Shown here one piece after another: positions 11,987 to 45,925 of a stretch of DNA of 51,848 nucleotides; positions within the stretch are counted from its first letter, which is position 1, and every line of letters begins with the position of its first letter. The notes below the pieces were generated by a model, which was given only the letters and a program-made list of their open reading frames with translations, did not search any database and was not told the DNA's origin. Origin of the DNA: Planctomycetaceae bacterium (lineage in GTDB: Bacteria; Planctomycetota; Planctomycetia; Pirellulales; Pirellulaceae). Where the stretch lies: the NCBI GenBank assembly GCA_947463915.1, contig CANHVO010000010.1, positions 1 to 51,848 of the forward strand, given 5' to 3'. The translations under genes were made by a program, and so were the position numbers.

Positions 11987-12013
11987 CGGGCAGCTACCGA
12001 TGCAAATGCCTCT

Positions 12014-12081
12014 CGTTTAACAGTCAGCCGAAGGCGTACCGCAGACCAAGTGACAGTACGCCTTCGGCTGACTGTTAAACG
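12014..12081. repeat. Palindromic repeat family A, copy 1
   Basis: A 68-bp imperfect palindrome. The left arm runs CGTTTAACAGTCAGCCG; the right arm is its near-perfect reverse complement ending CGGCTGACTGTTAAACG, with GTAC-type inner arms and a short unpaired loop. Further copies lie at 13139-13204, 21109-21174 and 28830-28896. It lies downstream of the 11114-11986 gene and could fold into a long terminator-like hairpin. Confidence 0.85.
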
Positions 12082-13069: not shown

Positions 13070-13138
13070 GGTTATCACCTATCGAATTGATTTTTGTTTT
13101 GTTGGATTGTTCGCTGTAGATCAGCTTCGCTGAAATCT

Positions 13139-13204
13139 CGTTTAACAGTCAGCCGTAAGCGTACTCGTCGCCTTTGACAGTACGCCTACGGCTGACTGTT
13201 AAAC
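13139..13204. repeat. Palindromic repeat family A, copy 2
   Basis: 66 bp, arms CGTTTAACAGTCAGCCGTA and TACGGCTGACTGTTAAAC. It lies between the flgA stop and the flgH start, inside a flagellar operon. Read-through must therefore occur here, or flgH has its own promoter downstream of the repeat. Confidence 0.85.
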
Positions 13205-13226
13205 AAATACTTGAATCGTGTTGCAT

Positions 13227-21044: not shown

Positions 21045-21108
21045 GCGCATGACAACGTGTTTTTGCTCCCCTGCAAGCGAAACGGCGCAAGCGGCTTGTT
21101 AATTTAGT

Positions 21109-21174
21109 CGTTTAACGGTCAGCCGTAGGCGTACTGCGTTCTTTTGAAGTACGCCTACGGCTGACTGTTAAACG
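21109..21174. repeat. Palindromic repeat family A, copy 3
   Basis: 66 bp with arms CGTTTAACGGTCAGCCGTAG and CTACGGCTGACTGTTAAACG. It is followed by a trailing segment (AAGTC, then CCGGACGACTT) that resembles the tail after copy 4. It lies in the gap before the DUF255 gene. Confidence 0.85.
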
Positions 21175-21215
21175 AAGTCTCTTTACCGGACGACTTTTTT
21201 ATTAAGGTAACGTTG

Positions 21216-25775: not shown

Positions 25776-26606
25776 ATGCGATGCAAGACAATGCTGCGAT
25801 TCAGCGTTAAGTACATAACTTTAGTCAGCCTAGCCAGTTGCAGCGGAGGCGCTGCTTTGGCTCAGTCGTCTCTCAATGACATGGCTTCGAATCCAAGGGT
25901 GTGTGATCAGGCAGATTGTGCCATTCAAGTTGAACGCGGAGCTAAGCGTCCTTTGATTGATGCGGCGGGTTGGTTTTTTGGAATCCCCCGCAAAATTCTC
26001 CAGTGGGATCGACGAGCCCAGAATCATCAGGTCTCTGATGCAACGGTTTGTGAAGTAACGGACTACATGGTGAAAAGCAACCTCGGCGATACTGTCGTTC
26101 GCGTAAACCAATATGCGCCGATCAAGGAATGGCAGCGTTTGACATCGAATCACCGTATTGCCCCCGGTTGGAGATACACAGTCGGTTCCCTTAAGTGGTT
26201 AAAATACACTTTTGTCCCAGGCCGTTTGTTTGGCAAAGACGAATACAACCCTTACAGCAATTCGATCTACCTTTACTCGGACATGCCAATGCTTGGGTTG
26301 GCAGAGGCTGCCTATCCAAAAGATATTAGCCAACGAGATCGCCCCGGTACGTACGCGGCCGTTCAAGAACTACCGGTAGTAGCCCTTTGGCATGAGACGA
26401 TTGCAACCAACGAAGTGATACAGTACGTGTCAATACATGGCAGTTCCGAAGAAATAGAGAATGTTCGGCATGACCTTTACGCGAGGTACGGCATCGAAAC
26501 AGCAGGGGCTGTCAGCCAAGTGCTACCAGATGGTTCAGGACTTTTTGCCATCGTTGGGGCGGTAGCCGGACATACCACCGCGGCGGTCGAAAACCGAAGT
26601 CCTTAA
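25776..26606 (+). CDS. Exported protein of unknown function
   Basis: 276 residues from ATG at 25776; ATG at 25704 or 25791 are alternatives. A signal peptide ending near AALAQSS is clear in MLRFSVKYITLVSLASCSGGAALAQ. The mature part shows a cysteine pair (VCDQADCAIQ), WFFGIPRKILQWDRR, and a C-terminal segment rich in small residues (GLFAIVGAVAGHTTAAVE). I recognise no family. Its stop overlaps the stop of the converging Uma2 gene by 4 bp. Confidence 0.7.
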   Translation: MRCKTMLRFSVKYITLVSLASCSGGAALAQSSLNDMASNPRVCDQADCAIQVERGAKRPLIDAAGWFFGIPRKILQWDRRAQNHQVSDATVCEVTDYMVKSNLGDTVVRVNQYAPIKEWQRLTSNHRIAPGWRYTVGSLKWLKYTFVPGRLFGKDEYNPYSNSIYLYSDMPMLGLAEAAYPKDISQRDRPGTYAAVQELPVVALWHETIATNEVIQYVSIHGSSEEIENVRHDLYARYGIETAGAVSQVLPDGSGLFAIVGAVAGHTTAAVENRSP

Positions 26607-27256
26607 AGCAACTTACGGATCGATTCAAGATTTTTCTGTTCATCAAAGAGGGCTTCGATCGCGAAGACAAAGCCTGGGATTGCTCGACTTTCCACAAGGC
26701 CAGAGTCCGATTTCTTCTTGAGTTCAAGCCCGTCCTTTTCGTGAAGGTACTGCTCAAGCACCCGTCGTTCAGAATCCACTATCCAATACTCGGTCACCCC
26801 TTGTGCTGAGTAATCGATAAACTTCGTACCGCGATCGCGTGCTTCAGTTGATTCGGATAGCACCTCAACCACCAGATCAGGGACCGGAAACTTAAGCGTA
26901 TCCAGATTGAGCCGTGAAGACTTCTCAACTCCAAAAAAGACCACATCCGGCTCGTAGTCATTGCGAGGGAACACGCACAAGCACTTTTCGGATTTGACCG
27001 TTCCAAGTCGATTCGCGATCACGAAGATGTTCATCGCCTGAAAAATGCAGCCGGTGGCGATCACATGCCGATTCTTAGCAGGCGAATGGAAAACAGCCGT
27101 TCCATCAATGAATTCAACTTTCTGTTCCGGCGTCATTTCCGCATAGAAGGTAGCGCGAAGCTGCTGTTCCCTAGCAATCTGCTGCAGCAACTCCTCGACG
27201 ATGCGAGGCAACAACGGCGAATGCCGAATCGGTTCGATGAGCTGGTCGAGAGTCAT
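26603..27256 (-). CDS. Uma2 family (DUF820) restriction-endonuclease-fold protein
   Basis: 217 residues from ATG at 27256; the TTG start at 27268 is less likely. It has the PD-(D/E)xK-like Uma2 signature: YEPDVVFFG, VPDLVVEVLSEST and DRGTKFIDYSAQGVTEYWIVD. Uma2 proteins are abundant in planctomycetes and cyanobacteria, often in many copies, and none has a settled role. It has a nuclease-type fold but activity is unproven. It is convergent with the exported protein gene (4-bp overlap). Confidence 0.9.
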   Translation of the reverse strand: MTLDQLIEPIRHSPLLPRIVEELLQQIAREQQLRATFYAEMTPEQKVEFIDGTAVFHSPAKNRHVIATGCIFQAMNIFVIANRLGTVKSEKCLCVFPRNDYEPDVVFFGVEKSSRLNLDTLKFPVPDLVVEVLSESTEARDRGTKFIDYSAQGVTEYWIVDSERRVLEQYLHEKDGLELKKKSDSGLVESRAIPGFVFAIEALFDEQKNLESIRKLL

Positions 27257-27767
27257 GGTTAGTTGCAAGTGCGTTTTTTAAGCGGTAGAGCAATCATACC
27301 AATTGTAATCCACAAAGAGACCCCAGGCTATCTAGCTTATCACCAGCGAATCGAGTTTGTTTCATTGCTAAGTACGTCGTCACTCGTCTTTGTCTTGAAA
27401 CTAAAAATTGCGGCACTGCGTTAGCCGCGGTTCTCGACGGATGTCGAGCACTTTTGGAAACCGGGGCTAGTGCTAAAAAGTCTTAAGTCTCTTCCAGTTG
27501 ATTGAAGCATACTGAGCCTGAAGCGCTAGCCGATTTCCAGAGGCGTGGCTCGCAACGCTGTTTCGCATTTCTCTCAATGCAAATTGGGCTTTCCTGTAGC
27601 GAAAGTCGTCAAGACTTTCGGCTGCATTGCATAAACCACCGAAACTCTTGACAAGTTTCGCTACAAATTACTTCACAGCGAGCCTCGTAGCTACGAACTA
27701 TCGCCGTTAGACTCTCTCATTTGCAATCGCCCCAACGCCTACCACTCCAATCACATGGAACCTTAAC
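27257..27767. other. 511-bp gene-free region with repeats
   Basis: Between the Uma2 gene and the hydrolase I find no convincing gene. 27513-27570 carries the flank of family C (shared with 33-78, including an exact 20-bp match at 27551-27570), followed by the full family C palindrome at 27595-27665. The promoter of the hydrolase is likely in 27666-27767. Confidence 0.6.
27595..27665. repeat. Palindromic repeat family C, complete copy
   Basis: 71 bp bounded by TGTAGCGAAA and TTTCGCTACA. Each half carries its own inner hairpin (GAAAGTCGTCAAGACTTTC and GAAACTCTTGACAAGTTTC), so the element is a palindrome of palindromes. It differs from the reverse complement of 46151-46221 at only four positions, so the two lie in opposite orientations. 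Confidence 0.88.
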
Positions 27768-28763
27768 ATGAATCAACAGCCTAAAAAATCGAGCAAAATT
27801 TGGATCGTGCTTGGGGTCTTGGGTGGCTTCTTCTTGCTCACCATTTGTATTTGTTGTGGGGCCGGGCTGTGGCTTATGCGTTTCCCAAGCGTGCCAGCTT
27901 CTGCGTCGCAAGCGTTCGACTACGGGACAAATCCGGTTCCGGCTGTTTCCATCAAAAGGACTTCGAAATACTTTCATGGTCTCGGGGCAAAGACCGAAGT
28001 CTTTTTCGGTGATGGCAGCGGATACGGCAAACCCGCGGGTAGCAATTCGAGGCTTTGGGTCTACATGCCCGATGCGAAACCGCAGCCGAGTTCAACTCCT
28101 TGTGTCTTGATTTGCGGCGCTGGCAGTACCTTGATGACAGGAATGAAATTGAGCGATGGGGATGAAGCAGAGCACCAGCTTTTTCTGAGAGCTGGTTTCA
28201 TCGTGGTTGCTTATGAACTCGATGGACCGAGTGACGACAATGCACCTGAACCGAAGTCATACCAAGCGTTTCGGGATTCCAACGCCGGCTTAGCCAACGC
28301 TCAAATTGCAATCGAATATGTATTGTCCAACATACCAGAAGTAAACCCAAAACAAATCTTTTCCGCGGGGCACAGCTCCGCTGGAACGACGGCATTGCTC
28401 TTGGCCGAACATGAACCGCGATTGGCCGGATGCGTTGCTTTTGCACCTTGCACGGATCTCAAAGCCAGAATCCCAGCTGCTTTGGTCAGGACAATGAGTT
28501 TTAGATTCGAGGGCCTAGCGGAGTTTTTAGTCAGAAGCTCGCCTCGCACCCATGAAATGCGAATCCAATGCCCCGTGATGCTCTTTCACGCGGCTGATGA
28601 TTCCAACGTACCAATCGAAGAAAGCCGGGCTTTTGCGGCAAGACTCCAAAACGCTGGAAAAGATGTCACCATCAAGGAAGTAGCCACTGGTGGCCATTAC
28701 CAACCGATGATTGATTCAGGGATTGCAGCTGGCGCCGCATGGATCAAGCAACATTTGAAATAG
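27768..28763 (+). CDS. Alpha/beta hydrolase with N-terminal membrane anchor
   Basis: 331 residues. A hydrophobic N-terminal segment (about 10-36, containing GVLGGFFLLTICICC) suggests a signal anchor or signal peptide; the Cys cluster could also be a lipobox. The hydrolase core has the nucleophile elbow GHSSAG (Ser about 203), an acid in FHAADDSNVP, and the His in TGGHYQ near residue 308. This is the layout of serine hydrolases of the prolyl-oligopeptidase/dienelactone-hydrolase type. Substrate unknown. ATG at 27768. It converges on jetC with about 200 bp between stops, and it is not a JetD. Confidence 0.83.
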   Translation: MNQQPKKSSKIWIVLGVLGGFFLLTICICCGAGLWLMRFPSVPASASQAFDYGTNPVPAVSIKRTSKYFHGLGAKTEVFFGDGSGYGKPAGSNSRLWVYMPDAKPQPSSTPCVLICGAGSTLMTGMKLSDGDEAEHQLFLRAGFIVVAYELDGPSDDNAPEPKSYQAFRDSNAGLANAQIAIEYVLSNIPEVNPKQIFSAGHSSAGTTALLLAEHEPRLAGCVAFAPCTDLKARIPAALVRTMSFRFEGLAEFLVRSSPRTHEMRIQCPVMLFHAADDSNVPIEESRAFAARLQNAGKDVTIKEVATGGHYQPMIDSGIAAGAAWIKQHLK

Positions 28764-28829
28764 ATGCAATTATGTCTGAAAGCGTCGATTTGACACACAC
28801 TCTAAGGCATTGCGGCTTGGAGATACTGT

Positions 28830-28936
28830 CGTTTAACGGTCAGCCGTAGGCGTACCGCATTCGTTTGACAGTACGCCTACGGCTGACTATCAAACGAAGT
28901 CCCCCCTCACCGGACGGCTTGCGCCGTTCCGCTAAC
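28830..28936. repeat. Palindromic repeat family A, copy 4, plus tail hairpin
   Basis: The palindrome at 28830-28896 (arms CGTTTAACGGTCAGCCGTAG and CTACGGCTGACTATCAAACG) is followed by a second small hairpin at 28907-28936 (CGGACGGC/GCCGTTCCG), also found in variant form at 23996-24025. Together they fill the gap where a jetD gene would be expected downstream of jetC. Confidence 0.8.
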
Positions 28937-28969
28937 CAAAAACGAAACGGGACAGATTACTAGTCTGAT

Positions 28970-31900
28970 TTAGGAATCGACAAAGTCGTTGAGCTGGTCA
29001 GCAGTGATGGAAATGAGTTCGCTGCGGTTGGTCTGCTTGTTCTTGACCACATGCAGATAAGTGCCAACGTATGGTTCAGTGACGCGAGCCTTCGCGTCCA
29101 ATGGAGCGACAATAAGCAACTGCAATCCAAATCGGGCAAACAAATCGAGCGCGTACTCCGCATGCGCATCGTCGCTCCTCGAAAACATCTCGTCCACCAT
29201 AACGAATTGAAAACGCTCACTCGTTGTCGCATCCGGGTCAAGGTCATATTGATAAGCAATGGCCGCAACCAAAACCAGAAACGCAAGCTTGCCCTTCTCA
29301 CCTCCGGATTGTCCCGTTCCTCCGTCATAGTAGCTGCGAGGCTCACCGGTCTCTTTGACAATCTCGCGTGCGGCGAAGTTGAACCAATTGCGCACGTCCA
29401 CGACCTTTTCTCGCCAACGTGTATTTCCGTCATCGCGAAGCTTCGCTACAAATTTTTCGATCCTTATGAACGTCGCTTCATTTGCCTCCGGCGACCCATC
29501 CAACGTGCCTGTCAAACAGCCCGCCAAGTCCCTTCGGAAATCTTGAATCTCGCGATCCTGAACATCTGTTGGCTCTAATCGCATGAACGTTCCGGACTTC
29601 CACTCCAGCAGCTTCAACGCCGTGTTAAGCTGCTCGATCTTGTCCCGAATCTCATCGCGTTCATCCTCGAGACCACCGTGCAACAAGCCAATCTCATTGA
29701 GCACGTTTTCATTCAAGCGACGTTTGAATCTCTCTTCATGCTTGGGCAAATCATCGACAGAAATCCGCTCAAACAAAGCCACAAAACTGGAAAGAGATCC
29801 GACGTCCGCATCCAATTCGATTTGCTCGTCCGGGAATTTCTTCAAGAACCGAGTCATGCCACTGGTCATTTCCCTGGCGATTGGAACGAGTCGCTCTTGC
29901 AATCGTTCGACGCTCTCGCGTTGAAGCCGCTCGGTCACGCCAGGCAATGTCCCTAAGTTCAAAATCGACAGAGGCTCTTTGAGCGAATCCTGAAGCGACT
30001 CGAATTGTTCGGTGGCTAACGTCAACGTACCTTCCGTATCGGCTCGCCGCAGTGTGTTGCGAGCACTTTCCAACAATCGATTGCCATCGTTCAACTCACG
30101 CTCTCGCATGGTTCGTTTGGCAATCGCTTGGTCGCGGTCCTGTTGATGCCCCACAACCTCGGCTCGTCGATCCGAGCACTGAGCTTTCAGCTCTCGAATG
30201 CGATCGTCGGATTCCTCGATGCGTTGCCGTTCGAGTTTCAGTTGTGATGCTTCGAACTCGTGTCGGAAATTGTCGATTGCATCAAAATCCTCTGTCTTGA
30301 GCGTTTGATCCAACGCCTCCAATGCGCCGGTGATTCGGTCTGTCTCTGCGTTCAGTTTCTGCACTCGCGATTGCAATTGCTGTAGGTCCTCAGTACCGCA
30401 TCGAATCGCTTCGGCCAAACTCAAACGCTTTTGCCGATTGTCCCAGCCCAGCACAAAATGCCGCCGATCGTCTGGCATTTGACGGTCATCTTTTTCGTGG
30501 CGCGCGTTTCCAGACTTGATGTGCCGATTCTTGGTCATCGCAGCCGCGTCAAGCTTCTGAAACTCTTCGATCGTTTCGCAAGCGACGTAGTCAAATCGCG
30601 ATTGGATCTCAGACCGAACCCAAGGAGCCAGCGGGTGGTCCGGAAACTCCAACTTGTGCATCAATCGCGATTGAGAACTGCTCGCTTGCGAACCGGGCGT
30701 CGATGGTCCGAACTTGGCTTTCGAGCCAACTCGCAAGTAAACAAGCCTTTGGCCTTGGCCTCGTCCGTCGACCAGACGTGTTCGATCGACGTAGCCAGCC
30801 ACCCGAGCGTAGAAATCCGGTGATACTAGAAGGCTTCTGGCAAACGAGTGCAACACTTGCTCGACAGACGATTCCCATTCTCGTTCCTTCGGGTTAACAG
30901 CAATCAACTCAGCCGCGAACGGCAAATCGCTCGGAGCCAATTTCAAATCGCGACAAATGGCATCTCGAACAGCAATAAACGACTCGGGCAAGTTGCCTTT
31001 TCGTTTTTCGAGAGCCTCGGCCTCCGATCTATCTTCGAAGAGCTGGCGGGTTAACGATCCAATTTCAAATTGCAGCGAGCTTTCTTGAGTTCGTTTTAAC
31101 TGACGTTCTTCTAGCAGCTTGGCTCGCCGTCCTTGACTCTCTTTGCGAACTTTTGCAAACTGTTCGGGTGAAGTCACTTGAACAGAAATACCGGCCGAAA
31201 CAAGCTGCGATTCAAACCTGGCACGGTAAGTTGCTTTAACCTTGGCGATCGCTTCAGCCTGTTCAATGAGCCCAGGCAGTTGTCGCAACCGATCGCCACC
31301 TGCATTCTCTATTTCGAACTCCAACCTAGCGATCTCGCTCCGCAATCGATCTTGCAATTTTTCTAATCGCAAAATGTCTTCATTGAGATTTTGGATCTGC
31401 TGCTGCCACTGGCTGCACATCGGTTCCAAAAGCTGAACCGTTCGATCTGCAAAGTAAAAGCGGATCGCGCTCTGTCGGAGTTTCGAAAGCTCGAGTTCTT
31501 CCAACCGCGATTGATAACGCTGGCCGGCTTCGACAATCGGACGCAAGAGTTCGTCTTGTTGCCGAACACGTACGAGCATGCGATGCGCTTCACTAAGCTC
31601 GGCGAAGTGCGTAAGCAGTCTGCCGACGCGTTCGTTCCAAGGCTTACGTTCGAGCATATGCTGCCGAATAAACTCATCGAGACGTTGCACGTCTTTGACC
31701 GCCACCGTTTGATTGAAGATGTCCATGGCTTTGGCAAGGAAGCCGGTCTTGCGCTGTAGCCACTGAAAGTACTCCTTGTAACTGCTCGTCGTTTTGAACC
31801 CGCGATCCTTGAGCGTGCGAGCAATCGAGCTGCCGGTCCCTAGTTCGCCGAGATCGCGAACGATGCCGCGTTCCGAATCGCAATACGCATAGACTTTTTC

Positions 31901-32401
31901 GACAGCGTTTTCGTTGTTCAGATAAAGCACTTGGCAGATCGTGAACATCGAACCAGCAGCGGCATTCGAAAAGCTGGCGAGCAGTGCGGTGTAGTGCCCA
32001 TTGCCATTGCGTAGGTACTGAATCTGAGGCCGTCCGCCGTCGCCGACAGTGCGGTCGTAGGCTCCGCGAATGTAAGTCTTCTCGTCCCGTTCGTTTTTTG
32101 ACGCACCTGCGGCAACGTTGTAGTTTCTTGTTTGGGGCCGAACTAGCAACGTCAACAAAGCATCGACTAAAGTCGACTTGCCCGAACCGTTTTCACCGAC
32201 CAGCAAAGTCGTTTGACCTCGAGGTTGAACAGAATACACCGCCCCATCGAACGTGCCCCAATTGTAGACCTCAAGCTTGGCCAGCCGATAGCCAGGTAAC
32301 GGCGGTCGGTCTGAGCCAGTCGCGCATACTTCATTTGAGCGTAAATCGGACGGCCTGATTGGCTCGATGGTCTTGTTTGATTTCGAATGCGTAGTCGTCA
32401 T
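28970..32401 (-). CDS. jetC: JetC: SMC-like ATPase of a Wadjet/MksBEF-type condensin
   Basis: 1143 residues. Walker A GENGSGKST is at 69-77. Long coiled-coil regions follow, with a central hinge-like section at about 480-640. The ABC signature GTGQSGGEKGKL is near 1028 and Walker B is FVMVDEMFSRSDDA near 1069, with the catalytic Glu. This is the MksB/JetC family, an SMC-like motor that dimerises and, with JetA and JetB, extrudes DNA loops. In Wadjet systems this feeds JetD, which cuts plasmid DNA. The start overlaps the jetB stop (ATGA, 32398-32401), showing tight coupling. The reading frame is complete. jetD is not next to it. Confidence 0.93.
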   Translation of the reverse strand: MTTTHSKSNKTIEPIRPSDLRSNEVCATGSDRPPLPGYRLAKLEVYNWGTFDGAVYSVQPRGQTTLLVGENGSGKSTLVDALLTLLVRPQTRNYNVAAGASKNERDEKTYIRGAYDRTVGDGGRPQIQYLRNGNGHYTALLASFSNAAAGSMFTICQVLYLNNENAVEKVYAYCDSERGIVRDLGELGTGSSIARTLKDRGFKTTSSYKEYFQWLQRKTGFLAKAMDIFNQTVAVKDVQRLDEFIRQHMLERKPWNERVGRLLTHFAELSEAHRMLVRVRQQDELLRPIVEAGQRYQSRLEELELSKLRQSAIRFYFADRTVQLLEPMCSQWQQQIQNLNEDILRLEKLQDRLRSEIARLEFEIENAGGDRLRQLPGLIEQAEAIAKVKATYRARFESQLVSAGISVQVTSPEQFAKVRKESQGRRAKLLEERQLKRTQESSLQFEIGSLTRQLFEDRSEAEALEKRKGNLPESFIAVRDAICRDLKLAPSDLPFAAELIAVNPKEREWESSVEQVLHSFARSLLVSPDFYARVAGYVDRTRLVDGRGQGQRLVYLRVGSKAKFGPSTPGSQASSSQSRLMHKLEFPDHPLAPWVRSEIQSRFDYVACETIEEFQKLDAAAMTKNRHIKSGNARHEKDDRQMPDDRRHFVLGWDNRQKRLSLAEAIRCGTEDLQQLQSRVQKLNAETDRITGALEALDQTLKTEDFDAIDNFRHEFEASQLKLERQRIEESDDRIRELKAQCSDRRAEVVGHQQDRDQAIAKRTMRERELNDGNRLLESARNTLRRADTEGTLTLATEQFESLQDSLKEPLSILNLGTLPGVTERLQRESVERLQERLVPIAREMTSGMTRFLKKFPDEQIELDADVGSLSSFVALFERISVDDLPKHEERFKRRLNENVLNEIGLLHGGLEDERDEIRDKIEQLNTALKLLEWKSGTFMRLEPTDVQDREIQDFRRDLAGCLTGTLDGSPEANEATFIRIEKFVAKLRDDGNTRWREKVVDVRNWFNFAAREIVKETGEPRSYYDGGTGQSGGEKGKLAFLVLVAAIAYQYDLDPDATTSERFQFVMVDEMFSRSDDAHAEYALDLFARFGLQLLIVAPLDAKARVTEPYVGTYLHVVKNKQTNRSELISITADQLNDFVDS

Positions 32402-33039
32402 GCTTCTTCCGATGGACTATCGTCTGTTTTTTTGCCGACGGCTGAAACGAGCGACAATCGCAACCTTTCTAAATCCGAGAGAGGCAACCGAGCCTTAATG
32501 ATTCGACGGACTTCCCAAGAGGGTGGCTCTTTTTCGAACTGTCGAACAAATTTCAGATCTTCCATTTTTCGCAATGCGGCCGTGAGCGAACGGTTGAGGC
32601 GAACCGAATCTGTTTGGTCCGGAAAGAACGCTTCCCAGAGTGATAACAAATCGTTTTGCGTGATGACGCACCGTTCGTTTTGGACATCTTCTTCTTCGTA
32701 TTGCCTGAGTTCATCTCGCAATAGCACGCAAAGCAAAGTCGCTTCGTATCCCAAAGGAGTTCTGCGAAACAACCGCGGCACGGCAGGAAAATCGGGTTGC
32801 ATCTCTTCCTCATCGAGCTGGCGCAGATACGCCATCGCGTCCGGTTCATCGACGACCAGCAGTAGCCCAAGCTTGCCGAAGTACTCCGTAATCGGAGATA
32901 CGTTTTCGAGAAGTTGTTCCCACAAATCGAGGTTGTCATCATGATAAACAACCCCTTGTAGAAGCCGAACTGCAACAGGACTCCAGTCCGCTGGAGGCGG
33001 GATTACATTGTTGTTTGCGTTGGGTGAGAAGAGGTCCAT
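32398..33039 (-). CDS. jetB: JetB: DUF4194 kite-like subunit
   Basis: 213 residues, the usual length for JetB/MksE. It carries DUF4194 features: AVRLLQGVVYHDDN at the start, MAYLRQLDEEE, LCVLLRDELRQYEEED, and a winged-helix-like C-terminal half (LNRSLTAALRKMEDLKFVRQF). In the complex it bridges the SMC ATPase and JetA. ATG at 33039 is directly preceded by a 7-bp tandem repeat with no Shine-Dalgarno motif. The stop overlaps the jetC start. Confidence 0.9.
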   Translation of the reverse strand: MDLFSPNANNNVIPPPADWSPVAVRLLQGVVYHDDNLDLWEQLLENVSPITEYFGKLGLLLVVDEPDAMAYLRQLDEEEMQPDFPAVPRLFRRTPLGYEATLLCVLLRDELRQYEEEDVQNERCVITQNDLLSLWEAFFPDQTDSVRLNRSLTAALRKMEDLKFVRQFEKEPPSWEVRRIIKARLPLSDLERLRLSLVSAVGKKTDDSPSEEA

Positions 33040-33040
33040 G

Positions 33041-33206
33041 TCAGTTATCAGTTATCAGTTATCAGTTATCAGTTATCAGTTATCAGTTATCAGTGGGCAC
33101 ATTCCATGTGCCGTCCACAGGAGTTCCAAAAACAACGGACCGGCAGACGGCACGACAGAGCACAACTACATTCATTGTCGCAGATAGGCAGATAGGCGGA
33201 CGGCAC
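33041..33206. repeat. Heptamer tandem repeat and inverted repeats in the jetA-jetB spacer
   Basis: 33041-33094 is TCAGTTA repeated seven times plus a partial unit (TCAGT), ending 1 bp upstream of the jetB start; on the jetB strand the unit reads TAACTGA. It is followed by a perfect GGCACAT-TCC-ATGTGCC hairpin (33096-33112) and a 9-bp inverted pair (GTGCCGTCC at 33108-33116, GGACGGCAC at 33198-33206). This is a repeat-packed insertion inside an operon whose genes are usually adjacent. Confidence 0.85.
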
Positions 33207-33235
33207 GCGGAGCTTGCCTGCTACTTTGGACTTGA

Positions 33236-34753
33236 TCATCGCGGTTTTGTTGCCACTTCGCGTGTTAACGCTTTTGCCTGAAATTCGACATGGGGGACGG
33301 AGACCGCTAACGTGGATGTTTTTCCTCGCGATTTGAGGATGATCTTGATGCGATCAATTGTGCTAGTATCGATTTTGTGCGAATCATCGTGTGCGATTTG
33401 CAAGTAGCCGAGCAACTCGACCACGCCGCCTGTCAATGGCCAGCGCTCTAGTAGTTCCGGCAGCGTCTCACTTTGGCCGAGTAAAGTTGCTTCGCGAATA
33501 TGGCTGCGCAGCTTTCGCAGATCCAATCGTTGCAGTTTTGAAAACGCAGAGGCCATGGCTTGAGCATGTCGCGGGTCAATCACTTGTTCGGTCAAATGCC
33601 TTTGGTCGAAGTCCTGGGGTGGAACCCAAAATGTCCGAGCCATCGGCGAGCTGATTTCCGCCTCAGCGTCCACCGAGATCTGGATCGATTGACATTCCGG
33701 TGCGCCACGCAAACGCAATGCCTGTTGTCGGATATCACGCAGTACATTAGCAAGTCGGACACGGTGTGCCGCTGCTCTTGCGTCGAGCAGTCGCCGCAAA
33801 GTTCCCGAGAGTCGAGCCGTAGTTCGCATGACCTTTTCCGCCTCGGCCAGGAGTGAAGGGACCATACGTCGAACGCGGGCTAGCGACTCGTGCTGGTCGG
33901 CCAGCGCCGCGAGCTGCTGTATCTCCTCGATGTTCTTTCTGAGGATGGCTTGTTGGTTTGGCGAGAACAAAAAGGACACGAACGCAAAGAAGCTGATCCC
34001 TTCGTCTTGCTGTTTGAGCAAGTCTTCCGAGTCCAAAGCGTGGCCCAGGATGTGACCTCGAGAATCATCGCCAGATGCTTGCAGTTGTTGTACCTCACGA
34101 GCGATCGCTTGAAAGCGTTCTTCGACAGCCCGAAAGTCCGATTGCAGAGCTCGCAAGAGATCGACCGCGGTTTGAAATCGTTCCCGTATTTGGGCTGGCC
34201 GATAGACTTGAACCGATTTCCCAGACTCGATGGCTGTGATCTCGGCATCAATCAGTGCGCGCTGAGCTCGCAGGTATTCAAGTCGGCGGTCGGGGTTAGC
34301 GGACGCACCGCGGACGATATCCTCTAGAGTATCGATGACCAGTCGAAGTCGACTTTCCGTTCCGACCAAATTGGAACCGCGAGCGACTGCGGCATCGACG
34401 AACTGGATCGCTTCTTCGGCGTAACGAGTCAGCTGGAATTGAGGTTCGAGCGACGCCGCTTCGAGAAAGCGCTGCAACCATCCCGAATCCGACCACTGAG
34501 TCAGATAACGTTCGGGCGGGCCAGACAATAGATTAGGTTCCGTTTCGTGGATTTCTTCTTGGTAGCCAATGAGACGTGTACGAAGATCCGATTGGCCGAT
34601 CGAAATGAGTTCTCCCGATTTGAACACGCGGTGGAGAAAATCAAGGATCAGAGGTGCGTTATCGGAACGAAGAAGCCGAGCGGTCGGTGACGCTTCAAAG
34701 AAGGTTCGGATGCTATCGCGTCGCAGGGACGAAACAAATCGACTGGTTAACAT
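33236..34753 (-). CDS. jetA: JetA: DUF3375 kleisin-like subunit
   Basis: 505 residues, normal for JetA/MksF. DUF3375 features: an N-terminal helical block (RTFFEASPTARLLRSDNAPL), ERYLTQWSDSGWLQRF, and an acidic/basic coiled-coil middle (about 160-330, LLRALQSDFRAVEERFQAIA). The C-terminal part contains LTGGVVELLGYLQIAHDD. JetA is the kleisin-like scaffold linking JetC heads and JetB. It is the first gene of the operon (ATG at 34753), separated from jetB by 196 bp of repeats instead of the usual overlap. Confidence 0.9.
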   Translation of the reverse strand: MLTSRFVSSLRRDSIRTFFEASPTARLLRSDNAPLILDFLHRVFKSGELISIGQSDLRTRLIGYQEEIHETEPNLLSGPPERYLTQWSDSGWLQRFLEAASLEPQFQLTRYAEEAIQFVDAAVARGSNLVGTESRLRLVIDTLEDIVRGASANPDRRLEYLRAQRALIDAEITAIESGKSVQVYRPAQIRERFQTAVDLLRALQSDFRAVEERFQAIAREVQQLQASGDDSRGHILGHALDSEDLLKQQDEGISFFAFVSFLFSPNQQAILRKNIEEIQQLAALADQHESLARVRRMVPSLLAEAEKVMRTTARLSGTLRRLLDARAAAHRVRLANVLRDIRQQALRLRGAPECQSIQISVDAEAEISSPMARTFWVPPQDFDQRHLTEQVIDPRHAQAMASAFSKLQRLDLRKLRSHIREATLLGQSETLPELLERWPLTGGVVELLGYLQIAHDDSHKIDTSTIDRIKIILKSRGKTSTLAVSVPHVEFQAKALTREVATKPR

Positions 34754-34944: not shown

Positions 34945-35140
34945 CGAATTGGACGGCTCAGATCAGACCTGCAGCCTCCTAGAATCCCAACGATTTCCAG
35001 AAAATCCCAGCCAAATGCTTGGAATAGCAGGCCTAAACCGCGACTTCTAAGTGAACCGTGGCGGCTTCAGGCGTGACAATTCCCTGGAATTCAAGTAAAC
35101 TTCTGAGTTGAAAATCAACCTCCACTCATTTGGCACACTA

Positions 35141-35572
35141 ATGGCACAACCGGATACGGCAACGACAACAACAGTACTTTCTCAGCAAACGCTTGCCGAT
35201 AGCGTAGAATGTGCAAAGCTTGCGGCGCGTGCTGCAGCGGAAAACAAAGGGCAGGACATACTCGTTTTGGACCTATCCAAGCAGACGAGCATCTTCGACT
35301 GCTTCGTGATCGCAACGGGTACAAGCCGCCGGCAATTGCAGGCCATCGCTGAAGAAATCCATCGCGTATTCAAGGCGCGCGGCGAATCGCGATTGAGCGT
35401 AGCAGGCTATGACGAAAGTCGCTGGATCGCTTTGGATTACGGCAGCGTCGTCATCCATTTGTTCGACGAAGAGTGCCGCAAGTTTTATGACTTGGAAGGG
35501 CTCTGGGCGGACAGCACGCGAATCGACCTGACTGAAACCTTGCGAGACTTGAATGCCAAGGCTAGTTTCTAA
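35141..35572 (+). CDS. rsfS: Ribosomal silencing factor RsfS
   Basis: 143 residues from ATG at 35141; the TTG at 35108 would add a non-conserved tail. RsfS binds ribosomal protein uL14 and blocks subunit joining, lowering translation under starvation. Conserved features: DILVLDLSKQTSIFDCFVIATGTS, RQLQAIAEEI, then SRWIALDYGSVVIHLFDEECRKFYDLEGLW. It is followed by a small membrane-protein gene 21 bp downstream. Confidence 0.95.
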   Translation: MAQPDTATTTTVLSQQTLADSVECAKLAARAAAENKGQDILVLDLSKQTSIFDCFVIATGTSRRQLQAIAEEIHRVFKARGESRLSVAGYDESRWIALDYGSVVIHLFDEECRKFYDLEGLWADSTRIDLTETLRDLNAKASF

Positions 35573-42972: not shown

Positions 42973-42980
42973 GCACTCCC

Positions 42981-43098
42981 GTTGGTGTACCGGCTTTAGC
43001 CGGCCGTTGCTGTACCGGCTTCAGCCGGCCGTTGGTGTACCGGCTTCAGCCGGCCGTTGGTGTACCGGCTTCAGCCGGCTAAAGCCGGTACACCAACG
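42981..43098. repeat. 25-bp tandem repeat with inverted terminal copy
   Basis: Four direct units of 25 bp (GTTGGTGTACCGGCTTCAGC plus CGGCC) at 42981, 43006, 43031 and 43056, then an inverted copy ending CACCAACGGG near 43097. The last direct unit and the inverted copy form a hairpin with a 17-bp stem. It lies 8 bp after the nadE stop and may terminate transcription. It is not a CRISPR array: units abut with no spacers. Confidence 0.85.
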
Positions 43099-43248
43099 GG
43101 ACACGAAAGCATCGCAAATGTGAATTTTTGATTGATCTCTTCCGTTTGTTACTGTCTTCTTGGACAAGCAACTAGGCAACATGGTGGGTTGACTTAGAAT
43201 GGAGACCACGGTCTCTCGTCGTTCCCTTCCGTTTTATTTCGCAACTTC

Positions 43249-44940
43249 ATGAACTATCGAAACTACTCGCTGGCCTTAACGGCCCTTTCTCTTTTGGTTT
43301 GTTCCAACCTAGCAGCACAGGAAAAAACAGCAGAAAAAGTTGCGGAGAAAACGGACAGCCCAAAAATCCCAACTCCAGAGGAGATGGCCTCGTTCGATCG
43401 AATCGCACGACTGCAGGCAGAGGCGATTGCGTCCAGGACTGCAAGTTGGGGACACTGGGGAAACCGCCCTAGCAGCTACAACGCTTGGACAAACCACTCC
43501 AATCGACTTATTCCTGTCTACGTTTTTGGCGGATCGTTCGATAGCTATATGGGGGCCGGGAGCATCTACCGAGATTCGGCGAGGCTTGAAAGTTTGTTTG
43601 GTCGGCTGCCGACCAATACAGTTCGAGCAGATGCTCCCTATGCCGATCAAACAGATGTGTATCGATTGCAACGCACAGCCACCGAAACACTTGGAAAGAA
43701 GTACGTTTTCCTAGTTGTATTTGACGGAATGGATTGGCAAACCACCAAGGCTGCTGCCGTCTACAAGTCAAACAAGGTTGGATACACAGAAGGCAAAGGA
43801 ACTGGCCTACTGTTTCAAGACTACAGCAAATGCAAAACGGACTTCGGTTATGTTGTCACGTCACCTTATGGCGATGAAGTCGAAACGGATGTCGATGCTC
43901 AATTGAACACGAAACCGGTAACCAAATTCGGCGGCTATGATTCTCGATTGGCAGGGTCGTTTCCGTGGCAAACGGAAATTGATACCGAGTACCCGATCGG
44001 CCGATCGAAGATTTCAGAACATGCATATACCGATTCATCATCGTCTGCTACATCGCTAACGGCGGGTATCAAGACAATCAACGGTGCTCTCAACTTGGAC
44101 TACAAACTCAATCCAGTCGAAACGATTGGGCAATGGTTGCAGAGGACCAAGGGGTTTGCCGTGGGAACCGTGACAAGCGTTCCGATTAGCCATGCCACGC
44201 CAGCTGCAGCGTATGCTCATAATGTTAGCCGCGATGATTATCAGGACTTGACTCGCGATATGCTTGGCCTGCCAAGCGTGTCGCACAGATCAACACCACT
44301 GCCAGGACTCGATGTTGTTCTGGGAGGTGGCTATGGCGAGGAGACAGCAGACGGAAAAGGCCAAGGCCAAAACTTCATCGCGGGCAATCGATACTTGGCT
44401 GACGAAGACCGCAAGCTCGTGGATGTCAGCACCGGAAATCCGTCCGCAAAGTACGTGGTGGCTCAGCGGACACCTGGAACAAAGGGCGCCGCGTTGTTAG
44501 CTGAGGCAACCAAAAAAGCAGTAGCGGACAAGAAGCGTCTACTTGGGTTCTTCGGTGTCAAGAAGGGGCACTTGCCGTTTCGAACCGCCGACGGTGACTA
44601 CAAACCGGTATTGGATGTAAAGGACGCGGAAGTCTATTCGCAGGCAGACCTAGACGAAAACCCGACGTTGGCCGATATGACCCAAGCCGCCATCGACGTT
44701 CTGCAAGAAGACAAGGACGGGTTCTGGTTGATGGTCGAAGCAGGCGACGTCGACTGGGCCAATCACAGCAACAACATCGACAATTCGATCGGTGCTGTTC
44801 TGAGCGGAGAGTTAGCGCTCGAGAAAATTTTTGGTTGGATCGATGCTCGCAATGCATGGGAAGAATCGCTCGTGATCGTAACCTCGGACCATGGTCATTA
44901 TCTGCATTTGCTGCAACCGGAAGTTCTGACGAGCAAGTAG
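43249..44940 (+). CDS. Exported alkaline phosphatase
   Basis: 563 residues. An N-terminal signal peptide (NYSLALTALSLLVCSNLAAQ) suggests export. PhoA-type motifs: FDGMDWQTTK, then YTDSSSSATSLTAG with Ser263 as the phosphorylated nucleophile, VTSVPISHATPAAAYAH, DVDWANHSNN and TSDHGHYLH for the remaining zinc ligands. This family hydrolyses phosphate monoesters in the periplasm to scavenge phosphate. ATG at 43249, after a 25-bp repeat array. Its stop is 2 bp from the stop of the convergent BON-domain gene. Confidence 0.93.
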   Translation: MNYRNYSLALTALSLLVCSNLAAQEKTAEKVAEKTDSPKIPTPEEMASFDRIARLQAEAIASRTASWGHWGNRPSSYNAWTNHSNRLIPVYVFGGSFDSYMGAGSIYRDSARLESLFGRLPTNTVRADAPYADQTDVYRLQRTATETLGKKYVFLVVFDGMDWQTTKAAAVYKSNKVGYTEGKGTGLLFQDYSKCKTDFGYVVTSPYGDEVETDVDAQLNTKPVTKFGGYDSRLAGSFPWQTEIDTEYPIGRSKISEHAYTDSSSSATSLTAGIKTINGALNLDYKLNPVETIGQWLQRTKGFAVGTVTSVPISHATPAAAYAHNVSRDDYQDLTRDMLGLPSVSHRSTPLPGLDVVLGGGYGEETADGKGQGQNFIAGNRYLADEDRKLVDVSTGNPSAKYVVAQRTPGTKGAALLAEATKKAVADKKRLLGFFGVKKGHLPFRTADGDYKPVLDVKDAEVYSQADLDENPTLADMTQAAIDVLQEDKDGFWLMVEAGDVDWANHSNNIDNSIGAVLSGELALEKIFGWIDARNAWEESLVIVTSDHGHYLHLLQPEVLTSK

Positions 44941-44942
44941 GG

Positions 44943-45218
44943 TCAGCAAACATGGATTTTGTTTGCTGCAATCGTTTCCCCTGATACCTTTGTCGCCACG
45001 TGTTGAGCGAGTTGTTTGCTATGGTAGGAACCTACTGTCCCTTCCAAAATCAACCCATTATCCAACATCGTCACACGAAGATCGCCTACGCTAAAGCCGA
45101 ATTGCGATTTCAATATTGCATCAATTTTGCCTGTCAGTTCATCTAAATCCGTTCGAAAATCCTGCGAACGCGAGTGGACGATTTCCGGTCTAGCGGTAAT
45201 CAGGCTTGCTTCAATCAT
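44943..45218 (-). CDS. BON-domain protein
   Basis: 91 residues. A BON domain is visible from about residue 30 to the end (FGFSVGDLRVTMLDNGLILE, then GTVGSYHSKQLAQHVATKV). BON domains are small alpha/beta folds that bind phospholipid or act in envelope-stress proteins, often after a signal peptide; none is obvious here. ATG at 45218 overlaps the stop of the upstream histidine phosphatase by 4 bases (ATGA), so the two are translationally coupled. Confidence 0.85.
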   Translation of the reverse strand: MIEASLITARPEIVHSRSQDFRTDLDELTGKIDAILKSQFGFSVGDLRVTMLDNGLILEGTVGSYHSKQLAQHVATKVSGETIAANKIHVC

Positions 45219-45925
45219 CGTGGCACAACCAGTTCCCCGCCTTCGTTTTCCCAGCGTTCGATGGCTTTTCGCTTCGCCGCGTCACACGCGACCGACGCAA
45301 CGCCCCAACGTGGTCGTTTCAAAGTTGCGATTGATTCTTGTGAAGTAGAGTTCCATTGCAAAATCGCTGGTGCGTCCTCGTCGTTGTGTTGATAGCTGAG
45401 AATGCTCAGCGATGCCGTATTCAAGAGAAAGCGTTCCGCAATTTCCACAGGCAGACCGATCCATCTCGCGCCGAAAACGCGGCCAAAATGACCGTGTGTG
45501 AACAAGGCGATATCACCATTGAGTTTTCGAAGCTTTGCAATAACGCGATCGACTCGGTTCGAGATTTGCATCGGCGATTCGCCGCTGGGACATCCATCCC
45601 GAAATAGATTCCAACCAGGGCGTACGCTGTCGATTTCACTGTGCGTTTGGCCTTCATAGTCGCCGTTGTCCCATTCTGTTATCTCCGGCTCGATTTCAGC
45701 TTTTTCTCCAAAGCCTGCGGACTGGCATGTTTGCAACGCGCGCCGTAGTGGGCTAACGAAGACATGCTGAAATGAAACTCCTTGAATTTGTTCTCGCAAC
45801 CGAACCGCCTCAGTCTTTCCATTGGCCGTAAGTGAGATGTCGGCGCGCCCGGTGTGTTGACCTGACACAGACCATTCCGTTTCGCCATGGCGCATCAGGT
45901 AGATGTTCGGGAGTCGTCGAAACAT
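45215..45925 (-). CDS. Histidine phosphatase (phosphoglycerate-mutase-like)
   Basis: 236 residues from ATG at 45925; an in-frame start at 46051 adds a hydrophobic, non-conserved tail. The family signature RHGE occurs as LMRHGETEWS (about residue 12), with SPLRRALQTCQ and a second catalytic His in IALFTHGHFGRV (about 160). Typical substrates are phosphosugars or phosphate esters (cobalamin, phosphoglycerate, AMP/SixA-like types). The substrate here is unknown. It is co-transcribed with the BON-domain gene. Confidence 0.9.
   Translation of the reverse strand: MFRRLPNIYLMRHGETEWSVSGQHTGRADISLTANGKTEAVRLREQIQGVSFQHVFVSPLRRALQTCQSAGFGEKAEIEPEITEWDNGDYEGQTHSEIDSVRPGWNLFRDGCPSGESPMQISNRVDRVIAKLRKLNGDIALFTHGHFGRVFGARWIGLPVEIAERFLLNTASLSILSYQHNDEDAPAILQWNSTSQESIATLKRPRWGVASVACDAAKRKAIERWENEGGELVVPR

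What the first reader, a model, noticed from the sequence alone, without database searches (positions are those of the whole stretch)
28970..34753. Wadjet/condensin operon jetABC with no adjacent jetD
Seen: intact jetA (DUF3375), jetB (DUF4194) and jetC (SMC-like, with Walker A, signature and Walker B). Expected from known Wadjet operons: a jetD gene (DUF3322/DUF2220, topoisomerase-VI-like nuclease) beside jetC. Between the jetC stop and the convergent hydrolase there are only repeats. Inference: a nuclease-free MksBEF-type condensin, a system using a distant JetD or another nuclease, or a decaying defence system.
Basis: partly seen in the sequence, partly recalled or inferred. Interest (0 to 1): 0.8.

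Follow-up and report, generated by a model that had tools for sequence, protein, structure and literature searches.

The report
Wadjet motor that lost its nuclease
A Pirellula-like bacterium keeps the DNA-reeling motor of an anti-plasmid defence machine but no detectable cutting enzyme; in close relatives the cutter gene sits elsewhere in the genome, and at the matching place in this species there is nothing.

Summary
Window 28970-34753 (-) carries intact jetA, jetB and jetC of a type I Wadjet motor. No jetD lies beside them, and none was found in the 618-contig assembly.

Relatives explain it. In the nearest one, G273 (JetABC 96-97% identical), a complete jetD lies about 10 kb away behind rsfS, not in the operon. 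At the matching place the window has an empty site (44939/44941) lacking 1.67 kb. In the genus, 13 of 27 genomes hold a full or nearly full JetC of this type. Six of them have a JetD on another contig; seven have none. Detached JetDs keep the catalytic residues and branch like JetC and SMC.

JetABC stays under purifying selection (dN/dS 0.04-0.07, G000 vs G273). The window lineage shows about twice its sister's amino-acid changes, a modest sign of relaxation.

Best reading: a split Wadjet whose detached nuclease was lost here, leaving a constrained nuclease-free SMC motor resembling MksBEF. JetABC without JetD is already reported in Stenotrophomonas; a vertically kept, detached jetD was not found in the papers searched.

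The parts
33236..34753 (-). jetA (DUF3375, kleisin), 505 aa, intact
32398..33039 (-). jetB (DUF4194, KITE), 213 aa, intact; overlaps jetC by 4 bases; no IFDR or IFDQ motif
28970..32401 (-). jetC (SMC ATPase), 1143 aa, Walker A, signature and Walker B intact
28764..28969 (.). stretch after jetC where jetD lies in linked Wadjet operons; here only dispersed inverted repeats
44939..44941 (.). empty site: the nearest relative G273 carries a 1.67-kb segment with a complete jetD here (L065 7612-9281), between the alkaline phosphatase and BON-domain genes
35108..35572 (+). rsfS, divergent from jetA; also beside jetABC in G243 and, across a contig break, in G273
43249..44940 (+). alkaline phosphatase gene flanking the empty site; used as a rate control
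44943..45218 (-). BON-domain gene (24.3 bits, under Pfam's cut-off of 27) flanking the empty site
33041..33094 (-). seven-base tandem array (7.7 copies) just before the jetB start codon

Best explanation
The locus is the motor half (kleisin JetA, KITE JetB, SMC ATPase JetC) of a type I Wadjet whose nuclease gene became detached from the operon in this Pirellula clade and was then lost in the window's lineage. In relatives that keep JetD, the motor presumably extrudes plasmid DNA and hands it to a JetD supplied from another locus. In the window's genome the motor would still load on and extrude DNA but could not cut it, so it should act, if at all, as a nuclease-free MksBEF-like SMC complex beside the canonical SMC. 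Shown: gene content, absence of JetD from the assembly, detached JetDs in relatives, the empty site, tree agreement, purifying selection. Inferred: that JetD works in trans in relatives, that the window lineage lost it rather than never having it, and that the remaining motor extrudes DNA and has a use.
For: No JetD in the assembly by two profiles. G273 holds a complete jetD about 10 kb away where the window is contiguous and empty. In the genus, 13 of 27 genomes hold a full or nearly full JetC of this type (G314's is cut by its contig end); six have a JetD, each on another contig, and seven have none. All seven JetDs assigned to this type lie in genomes with JetC of this type, two fragments counted (hypergeometric 0.007). 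The six detached JetDs form one clade (97/96) branching ((G311,G303),(G273,(G315,(G314,G304)))), as JetC does and SMC for the five of them in its tree. The catalytic E, D, D are conserved in 31 of 31 JetDs aligned. dN/dS of JetABC is 0.038-0.066 for G000 vs G273, and 0.067 (JetB) and 0.091 (JetC) for G308 vs G312, both without JetD. Linkage is the rule elsewhere: of the 80 JetC loci returned (best of 396), 77 could be judged; 65 have JetD within about 0.75 kb and 12 do not, 9 of these 12 from this genus.
Against: The assembly is broken into 618 contigs and even its smc gene is cut at a contig end, so a jetD in a gap is not excluded. The phosphatase neighbourhood is not conserved outside G000/G273, so the site alone cannot tell loss here from gain in G273. 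With three groups of detached JetD, the deep branching order would match by chance one time in three. The three groups have three different sites, which also fits separate acquisitions. The window lineage shows 33 amino-acid changes against 17 in its sister, which fits some decay. Low dN/dS in the window says little if the loss is very recent, and G312 is only 77% complete. G307 (76% complete) has a JetD in two pieces, not assigned to a type, and no JetC match.
Confidence: 0.68

Rival explanations
1. Decaying defence: after JetD was lost the motor has no use and is being lost too; it looks intact only because the loss is recent.
For: G000 has 33 amino-acid changes against 17 in G273 (outgroup G243), with synonymous changes about equal at 139 and 130. 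In gap-free columns the count is 33 to 14, while the SMC control is 16 to 17 and the phosphatase control 3 to 5. JetABC/SMC branch ratios are 0.80, 0.57 and 0.52 in lineages without JetD and 0.15-0.59 in five with it. G249 without JetD has a JetC branch of 0.94 against 0.23 in G208 with it.
Against: ATPase motifs are present in 9 of 9 JetD-less JetCs checked. G308 vs G312, both without JetD, has dN/dS 0.067-0.091, and G133 vs G297 JetA 0.096 at dS 1.33. Fisher test of JetABC against SMC changes gives p = 0.064. With outgroup G315 the phosphatase control leans the same way (7 to 4). Long JetC branches also occur with linked jetD (L150 1.15, G081 0.99, G099 0.92).
Confidence: 0.17
2. A JetD (or a substitute nuclease) exists in the window's genome but lies in an assembly gap or is too divergent to detect, and the system is complete.
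For: Relatives show that jetD can lie far from jetABC. The genome is in 618 contigs and smc is cut at a contig end. A Uma2-family nuclease gene lies nearby at 26603-27268.
Against: The assembly is 99.26% complete; 0 matches in two searches. The sister's site is empty. The Uma2 gene is also beside jetABC in G273, which has JetD, and the gene after jetC differs between the JetD-less groups examined.
Confidence: 0.1
3. The window lineage never had a detached jetD: G273 and the other groups each acquired JetD horizontally into genomes that already had a nuclease-free motor.
For: Three groups carry detached jetD at three different sites, and no ancestral site could be shown.
Against: The six detached JetDs form one supported clade that follows JetC and SMC branching. 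Wider relatives mostly have jetD after jetC.
Confidence: 0.15

Closest known systems
Type I Wadjet (JetABCD; also MksBEFG, EptABCD)
   Same: JetA, JetB and JetC families and gene order; JetC matches solved Wadjet JetC chains at 7e-57 and JetA solved JetA chains at 6e-16; G273's detached JetD matches MksG and JetD structures.
   Different: No jetD in the operon or the assembly; in relatives jetD is encoded apart. JetB lacks the IFDR motif, as do relatives with linked jetD, and matches no solved chain by sequence.
Wadjet I without jetD in Stenotrophomonas maltophilia (PMC11680222, passages read)
   Same: jetA, jetB and jetC conserved (>95%) with no jetD in the most frequent variant; the authors call it probably inactive.
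   Different: There a conserved incomplete operon in one species; here a genus with detached jetD in some species and none in others, with an empty site visible.
MksBEF of Pseudomonas aeruginosa (review PMC10586767, passages read)
   Same: SMC, kleisin and KITE without a nuclease; [quoted passage not shown]
   Different: Here the closest models are JetA1, JetB1 and JetC1, the step looks recent, and chromosome organisation has not been tested.
PADLOC 'other' models for partial Wadjet (PMC9252829, passages read)
   Same: The software class meant for such incomplete loci.
   Different: A detection label that also takes in Muk systems, contig breaks and pseudogenes; the passages make no claim about detached jetD.

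Membership tests
Type I Wadjet | JetA (DUF3375) | tested here: met
   301 bits, cut-off 28.6; JetA1
Type I Wadjet | JetB (DUF4194) | tested here: met
   121 bits, cut-off 32.7; JetB1
Type I Wadjet | JetC SMC ATPase with Walker A, signature and Walker B | tested here: met
Type I Wadjet | jetD in the operon | tested here: not met
Type I Wadjet | JetD anywhere in the genome | tested here: not met
   0 matches in G000 with PF09983 and with a 13-row JetD profile; limited by 618 contigs
Type I Wadjet | JetB N-terminal IFDR motif that contacts JetD (review PMC10586767, passage) | tested here: not met
   No IFDR or IFDQ in 36 of 36 JetBs of the window's type, relatives with linked jetD included; present in 7 of 8 JetBs of the other type (not in G023). 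It separates subtypes and does not mark JetD loss.
Type I Wadjet | restricts circular plasmids by cleavage | not testable with these tools
   needs a transformation assay
MksBEF nuclease-free condensin | SMC, kleisin and KITE without a nuclease gene | tested here: met
   JetB also passes the MksE family (43.8 bits, cut-off 27) below DUF4194
MksBEF nuclease-free condensin | phylogenetic placement with Pseudomonas MksB | not tested
   no Pseudomonas MksB was placed in the trees
MksBEF nuclease-free condensin | contributes to chromosome organisation | not testable with these tools
   needs Hi-C or a deletion

The most novel reading that the evidence does not exclude
This Pirellula clade catches a defence system turning into a housekeeping SMC complex: the nuclease gene first left the operon and worked in trans, then was lost at least three times (window species, G243, G308/G312), while the JetABC motor stayed under selection for a nuclease-free role. 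A second subtype (G133, G297, second copy in G311) has no jetD after jetC at any of its three loci.
Probability: 0.35. Interest if true: 0.68.

Novelty: new variant of a known kind. Interest (0 to 1): 0.5.

Why it matters
A review proposes that MksBEF arose from Wadjet by losing its nuclease (PMC10586767, passage). Here are related species with the nuclease detached and with it missing, including a sister pair that differs at one visible site, so the step can be tested directly. It also warns that a definition requiring the full set of neighbouring jet genes will call such systems incomplete when JetD is encoded elsewhere.

Tried and rejected
Another nuclease as substitute: the gene after jetC differs among JetD-less loci: a hydrolase in the window, a 575-aa gene without a Pfam match in G243 and a DUF676 esterase in G308 (a same-sized ORF in G312 was not scanned), DUF4332 in G133, G297 and G311's second copy, mnmE in G249. 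All but mnmE are convergent to jetC. No shared effector was found. The Uma2 gene is beside jetABC in G273 too, which has JetD. A 126-aa frame after jetC at the contig end of G299 is not a JetD piece (no Pfam match; no JetD-profile match).

JetB IFDR motif as a marker of JetD loss: rejected, because relatives with linked jetD lack it too.

Telling deletion from insertion at 44940 by an outgroup: failed, because the phosphatase neighbourhood is not conserved. The PIG-L neighbour of the G315-group jetD gave no answer for the window either, whose best match is only 40% identical.

A degraded jetD in the window: tblastn of five JetDs gave only chance-level matches (best E 0.064). JetABC replacing canonical SMC: rejected, since SMC was found in 13 of 13 genomes searched, 12 over the cut-off and a contig-end fragment in G000. 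Acceleration of JetABC without JetD: suggestive only. In 13 of 15 comparisons the JetABC/SMC branch ratio is higher without JetD; by hand, the exact one-sided value is 4 of 56. G299, also without JetD, does not fit (JetC 0.36 against SMC 1.05). JetB dN/dS of 0.121 for G315/G304 includes an over-long start called by the script.
Full report
WHAT IS THERE. Three genes on the minus strand, jetA (33236-34753), jetB (32398-33039) and jetC (28970-32401), are intact; jetB and jetC overlap by 4 bases. Pfam and PADLOC assign them to JetA, JetB and JetC of type I Wadjet. JetC carries Walker A, signature and Walker B motifs and matches solved Wadjet JetC chains. The 206 bases between jetC and the convergent hydrolase hold only repeats. 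The window genes scanned are mostly housekeeping or unknown (rsfS, flagellar genes, a histidine-biosynthesis gene, cytochromes), not a defence island; the only clear further PADLOC match among ten neighbours is the Uma2 gene, besides a weak HTH match.

JETD IN THIS GENOME. PF09983 finds nothing in G000, and neither does a profile from 13 JetDs. JetA is found once. The genome is listed as 99.26% complete in 618 contigs; its smc match covers only profile positions 360-1180 because the contig ends there, so gaps are real.

RELATIVES IN THE ORDER. Of 296 genomes sampled, 30 match PF11855 and 27 match PF09983. I set aside three partial or weak JetA genomes (G036, G083, G041). Of the remaining 27, 21 also have JetD_C and six do not: G000, G133, G243, G237, G249 and G218 (83% complete).

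THE NEAREST RELATIVE. G273, whose JetA, JetB and JetC are 97, 97 and 96% identical to the window's, has jetABC at the start of contig C22 and a complete jetD on C39. By synteny with the window the two contigs are neighbours: rsfS matches the end of C39 and jetA the start of C22. G273 jetD therefore lies about 10 kb from jetA, beyond rsfS. The window aligns on both sides of it: 43115-44939 and 44941-45396 match L065 11107-9282 and 7611-7156. The 1.67 kb with jetD is missing and both flanking genes are intact. tblastn finds no remnant.

THE GENUS. Record titles name its members as Pirellula or as unnamed planctomycete MAGs. Of 27 genomes, 13 have a full or nearly full JetC of the window's type (G311 twice; G314's is cut by its contig end) and two more a fragment (G306, G313). 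JetD of this type occurs in seven. Six are detached, on another contig than jetC (G273, G315, G314, G304, G303, G311); in G306 jetD directly follows the jetC fragment. Seven genomes with JetC have none: G000, G243, G308, G299, G133, G297 and G312 (77% complete); nor has G313. In G299 the contig ends 429 bases after jetC, and in G297 649 bases after. The 16 of 27 tally includes one genome with only a weak match at 6e-4 (G296) and one with JetD in two pieces, not assigned to a type and without a JetC match (G307, 76% complete). A second, distant type (about 25% identical) is a linked jetABCD in the loci examined. The detached genes sit at three kinds of site: beside the phosphatase in G273; between a glycine-zipper and a PIG-L gene in G315, G304 and G314; beside a DsbD-like gene in G303 and G311.

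HOW UNUSUAL IS THIS. The named-genome scan kept the best 80 of 396 JetC loci. Three were too short to judge. Of the other 77, 65 have JetD within about 0.75 kb after jetC (L148 cut by its contig end) and 12 do not: nine from this genus, L143 (the same assembly as G237) and two Selenomonas. Fisher p = 1.4e-9 for the nine against the rest. One of the two Selenomonas genomes has a JetD elsewhere. In G237 even jetAB and jetC are on different contigs, and in G208 jetAB, jetC pieces and jetD are all on different contigs.

DESCENT. JetC trees and an SMC tree agree on eight genomes: ((G303,G311),((G243,(G000,G273)),(G308,(G315,G304)))). Detached JetDs form one clade (97/96) with the matching order. 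This favours a JetD in the common ancestor and at least three losses (window, G243, G308 with G312). The limits: three groups match by chance one time in three, two of the JetC forks have 81 and 88% bootstrap, the SMC tree carries a long-branch warning, and different sites allow separate gains.

CONSTRAINT. G000 vs G273 dN/dS is 0.038 (JetA), 0.066 (JetB) and 0.049 (JetC); nine other genes of the window range from 0 to 0.30, and two had no counterpart found. Both without JetD: G308 vs G312 0.067 (JetB) and 0.091 (JetC). G133 vs the second copy of G311: 0.127-0.152; G311 does have a JetD, presumably the partner of its other copy. G133 vs G297 JetA 0.096 at dS 1.33, with JetB and JetC synonymous sites saturated. 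With detached JetD, JetA and JetC give 0.014-0.082 and JetD itself 0.118-0.178, like linked JetD at 0.116-0.147. With outgroup G243 the window has 33 amino-acid changes and G273 17, synonymous 139 and 130; outgroups G315, G304 and G308 give 28:13, 28:14 and 23:13. In gap-free columns with outgroups G243, G315 and G308 the counts are 33:14, 27:13 and 23:13 for JetABC, 16:17, 14:15 and 9:12 for SMC, and 3:5, 7:4 and 3:6 for the phosphatase. Binomial p = 0.008 for 33:14; Fisher against SMC p = 0.064. So selection persists, perhaps eased about two-fold. Long JetC branches are not confined to JetD-less lineages (L150, G081 and G099 have linked jetD).

MECHANISM. In known Wadjet, JetABC dimers extrude circular DNA and JetD is activated at the end of extrusion (passages of PMC10586767 and PMC12647877). 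The detached JetDs keep both the DUF3322 and JetD_C domains in the three scanned and the catalytic E, D, D in 31 of 31 JetDs aligned; the E aligns with the mutated residue of JetD(E248A) in structure 8q72. They are therefore likely partners in trans. Without JetD the window's motor should extrude but not cut. What it then does (chromosome folding, silencing of plasmids, or nothing) is not shown here; canonical SMC is present too.

PRIOR WORK. Wadjet I without jetD is reported in S. maltophilia (PMC11680222, passages), and loss of JetD is proposed for MksBEF (PMC10586767, passages). My searches (open-licence papers only, seen as listings) and the passages read in seven papers showed no report of a detached, vertically kept jetD. 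The primary structure paper was not held.

VERDICT. Observation right; the cause is most likely loss of an already detached nuclease gene. A new variant of a known kind, of moderate interest.

Noticed in passing
33041-33094: Seven-base tandem array (7.7 perfect copies) just before the jetB start; G273 has a different seven-base array at the same place (L064 about 1862-1898).
   Followed up: partly
28829-28897, also 12010-12081, 13138-13207, 21091-21196: Dispersed inverted repeat of about 70 bases, several copies in the window and in G273.
   Followed up: partly
27888-28820: Most of the hydrolase gene is absent in G273, which aligns up to 27887 and again from about 28829.
   Followed up: no
26524-27887: Stretch with the Uma2 gene is 96.8% identical to G273 while most aligned surroundings are about 90%, perhaps recent exchange.
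   Followed up: no
L059, L130, L133: Second JetABC subtype (G133, G311 second copy, G297) with a convergent DUF4332 gene after jetC and no jetD there (only 649 bases held after jetC in G297); long JetC branch.
   Followed up: partly
L061, L229, L066, L067, L224: In G237 jetAB and jetC are on different contigs; in G208 jetAB, jetC fragments and jetD are on different contigs.
   Followed up: partly
L182, L193: Selenomonas JetC loci without a jetD match after jetC; the genome of L182 has a JetD on another contig.
   Followed up: partly
L215: JetD reading frame in the genome of L142 with two internal stop codons at a contig start.
   Followed up: no
42979-43079: 25-base unit repeated four times between the NAD-synthase and alkaline phosphatase genes.
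   Followed up: no
L068, L071, L074, L112, L113, L115, L116: Seven of eight JetBs of the second, linked type carry an IFDR or IFDQ motif (not G023), which 36 of 36 JetBs of the window's type lack.
   Followed up: yes
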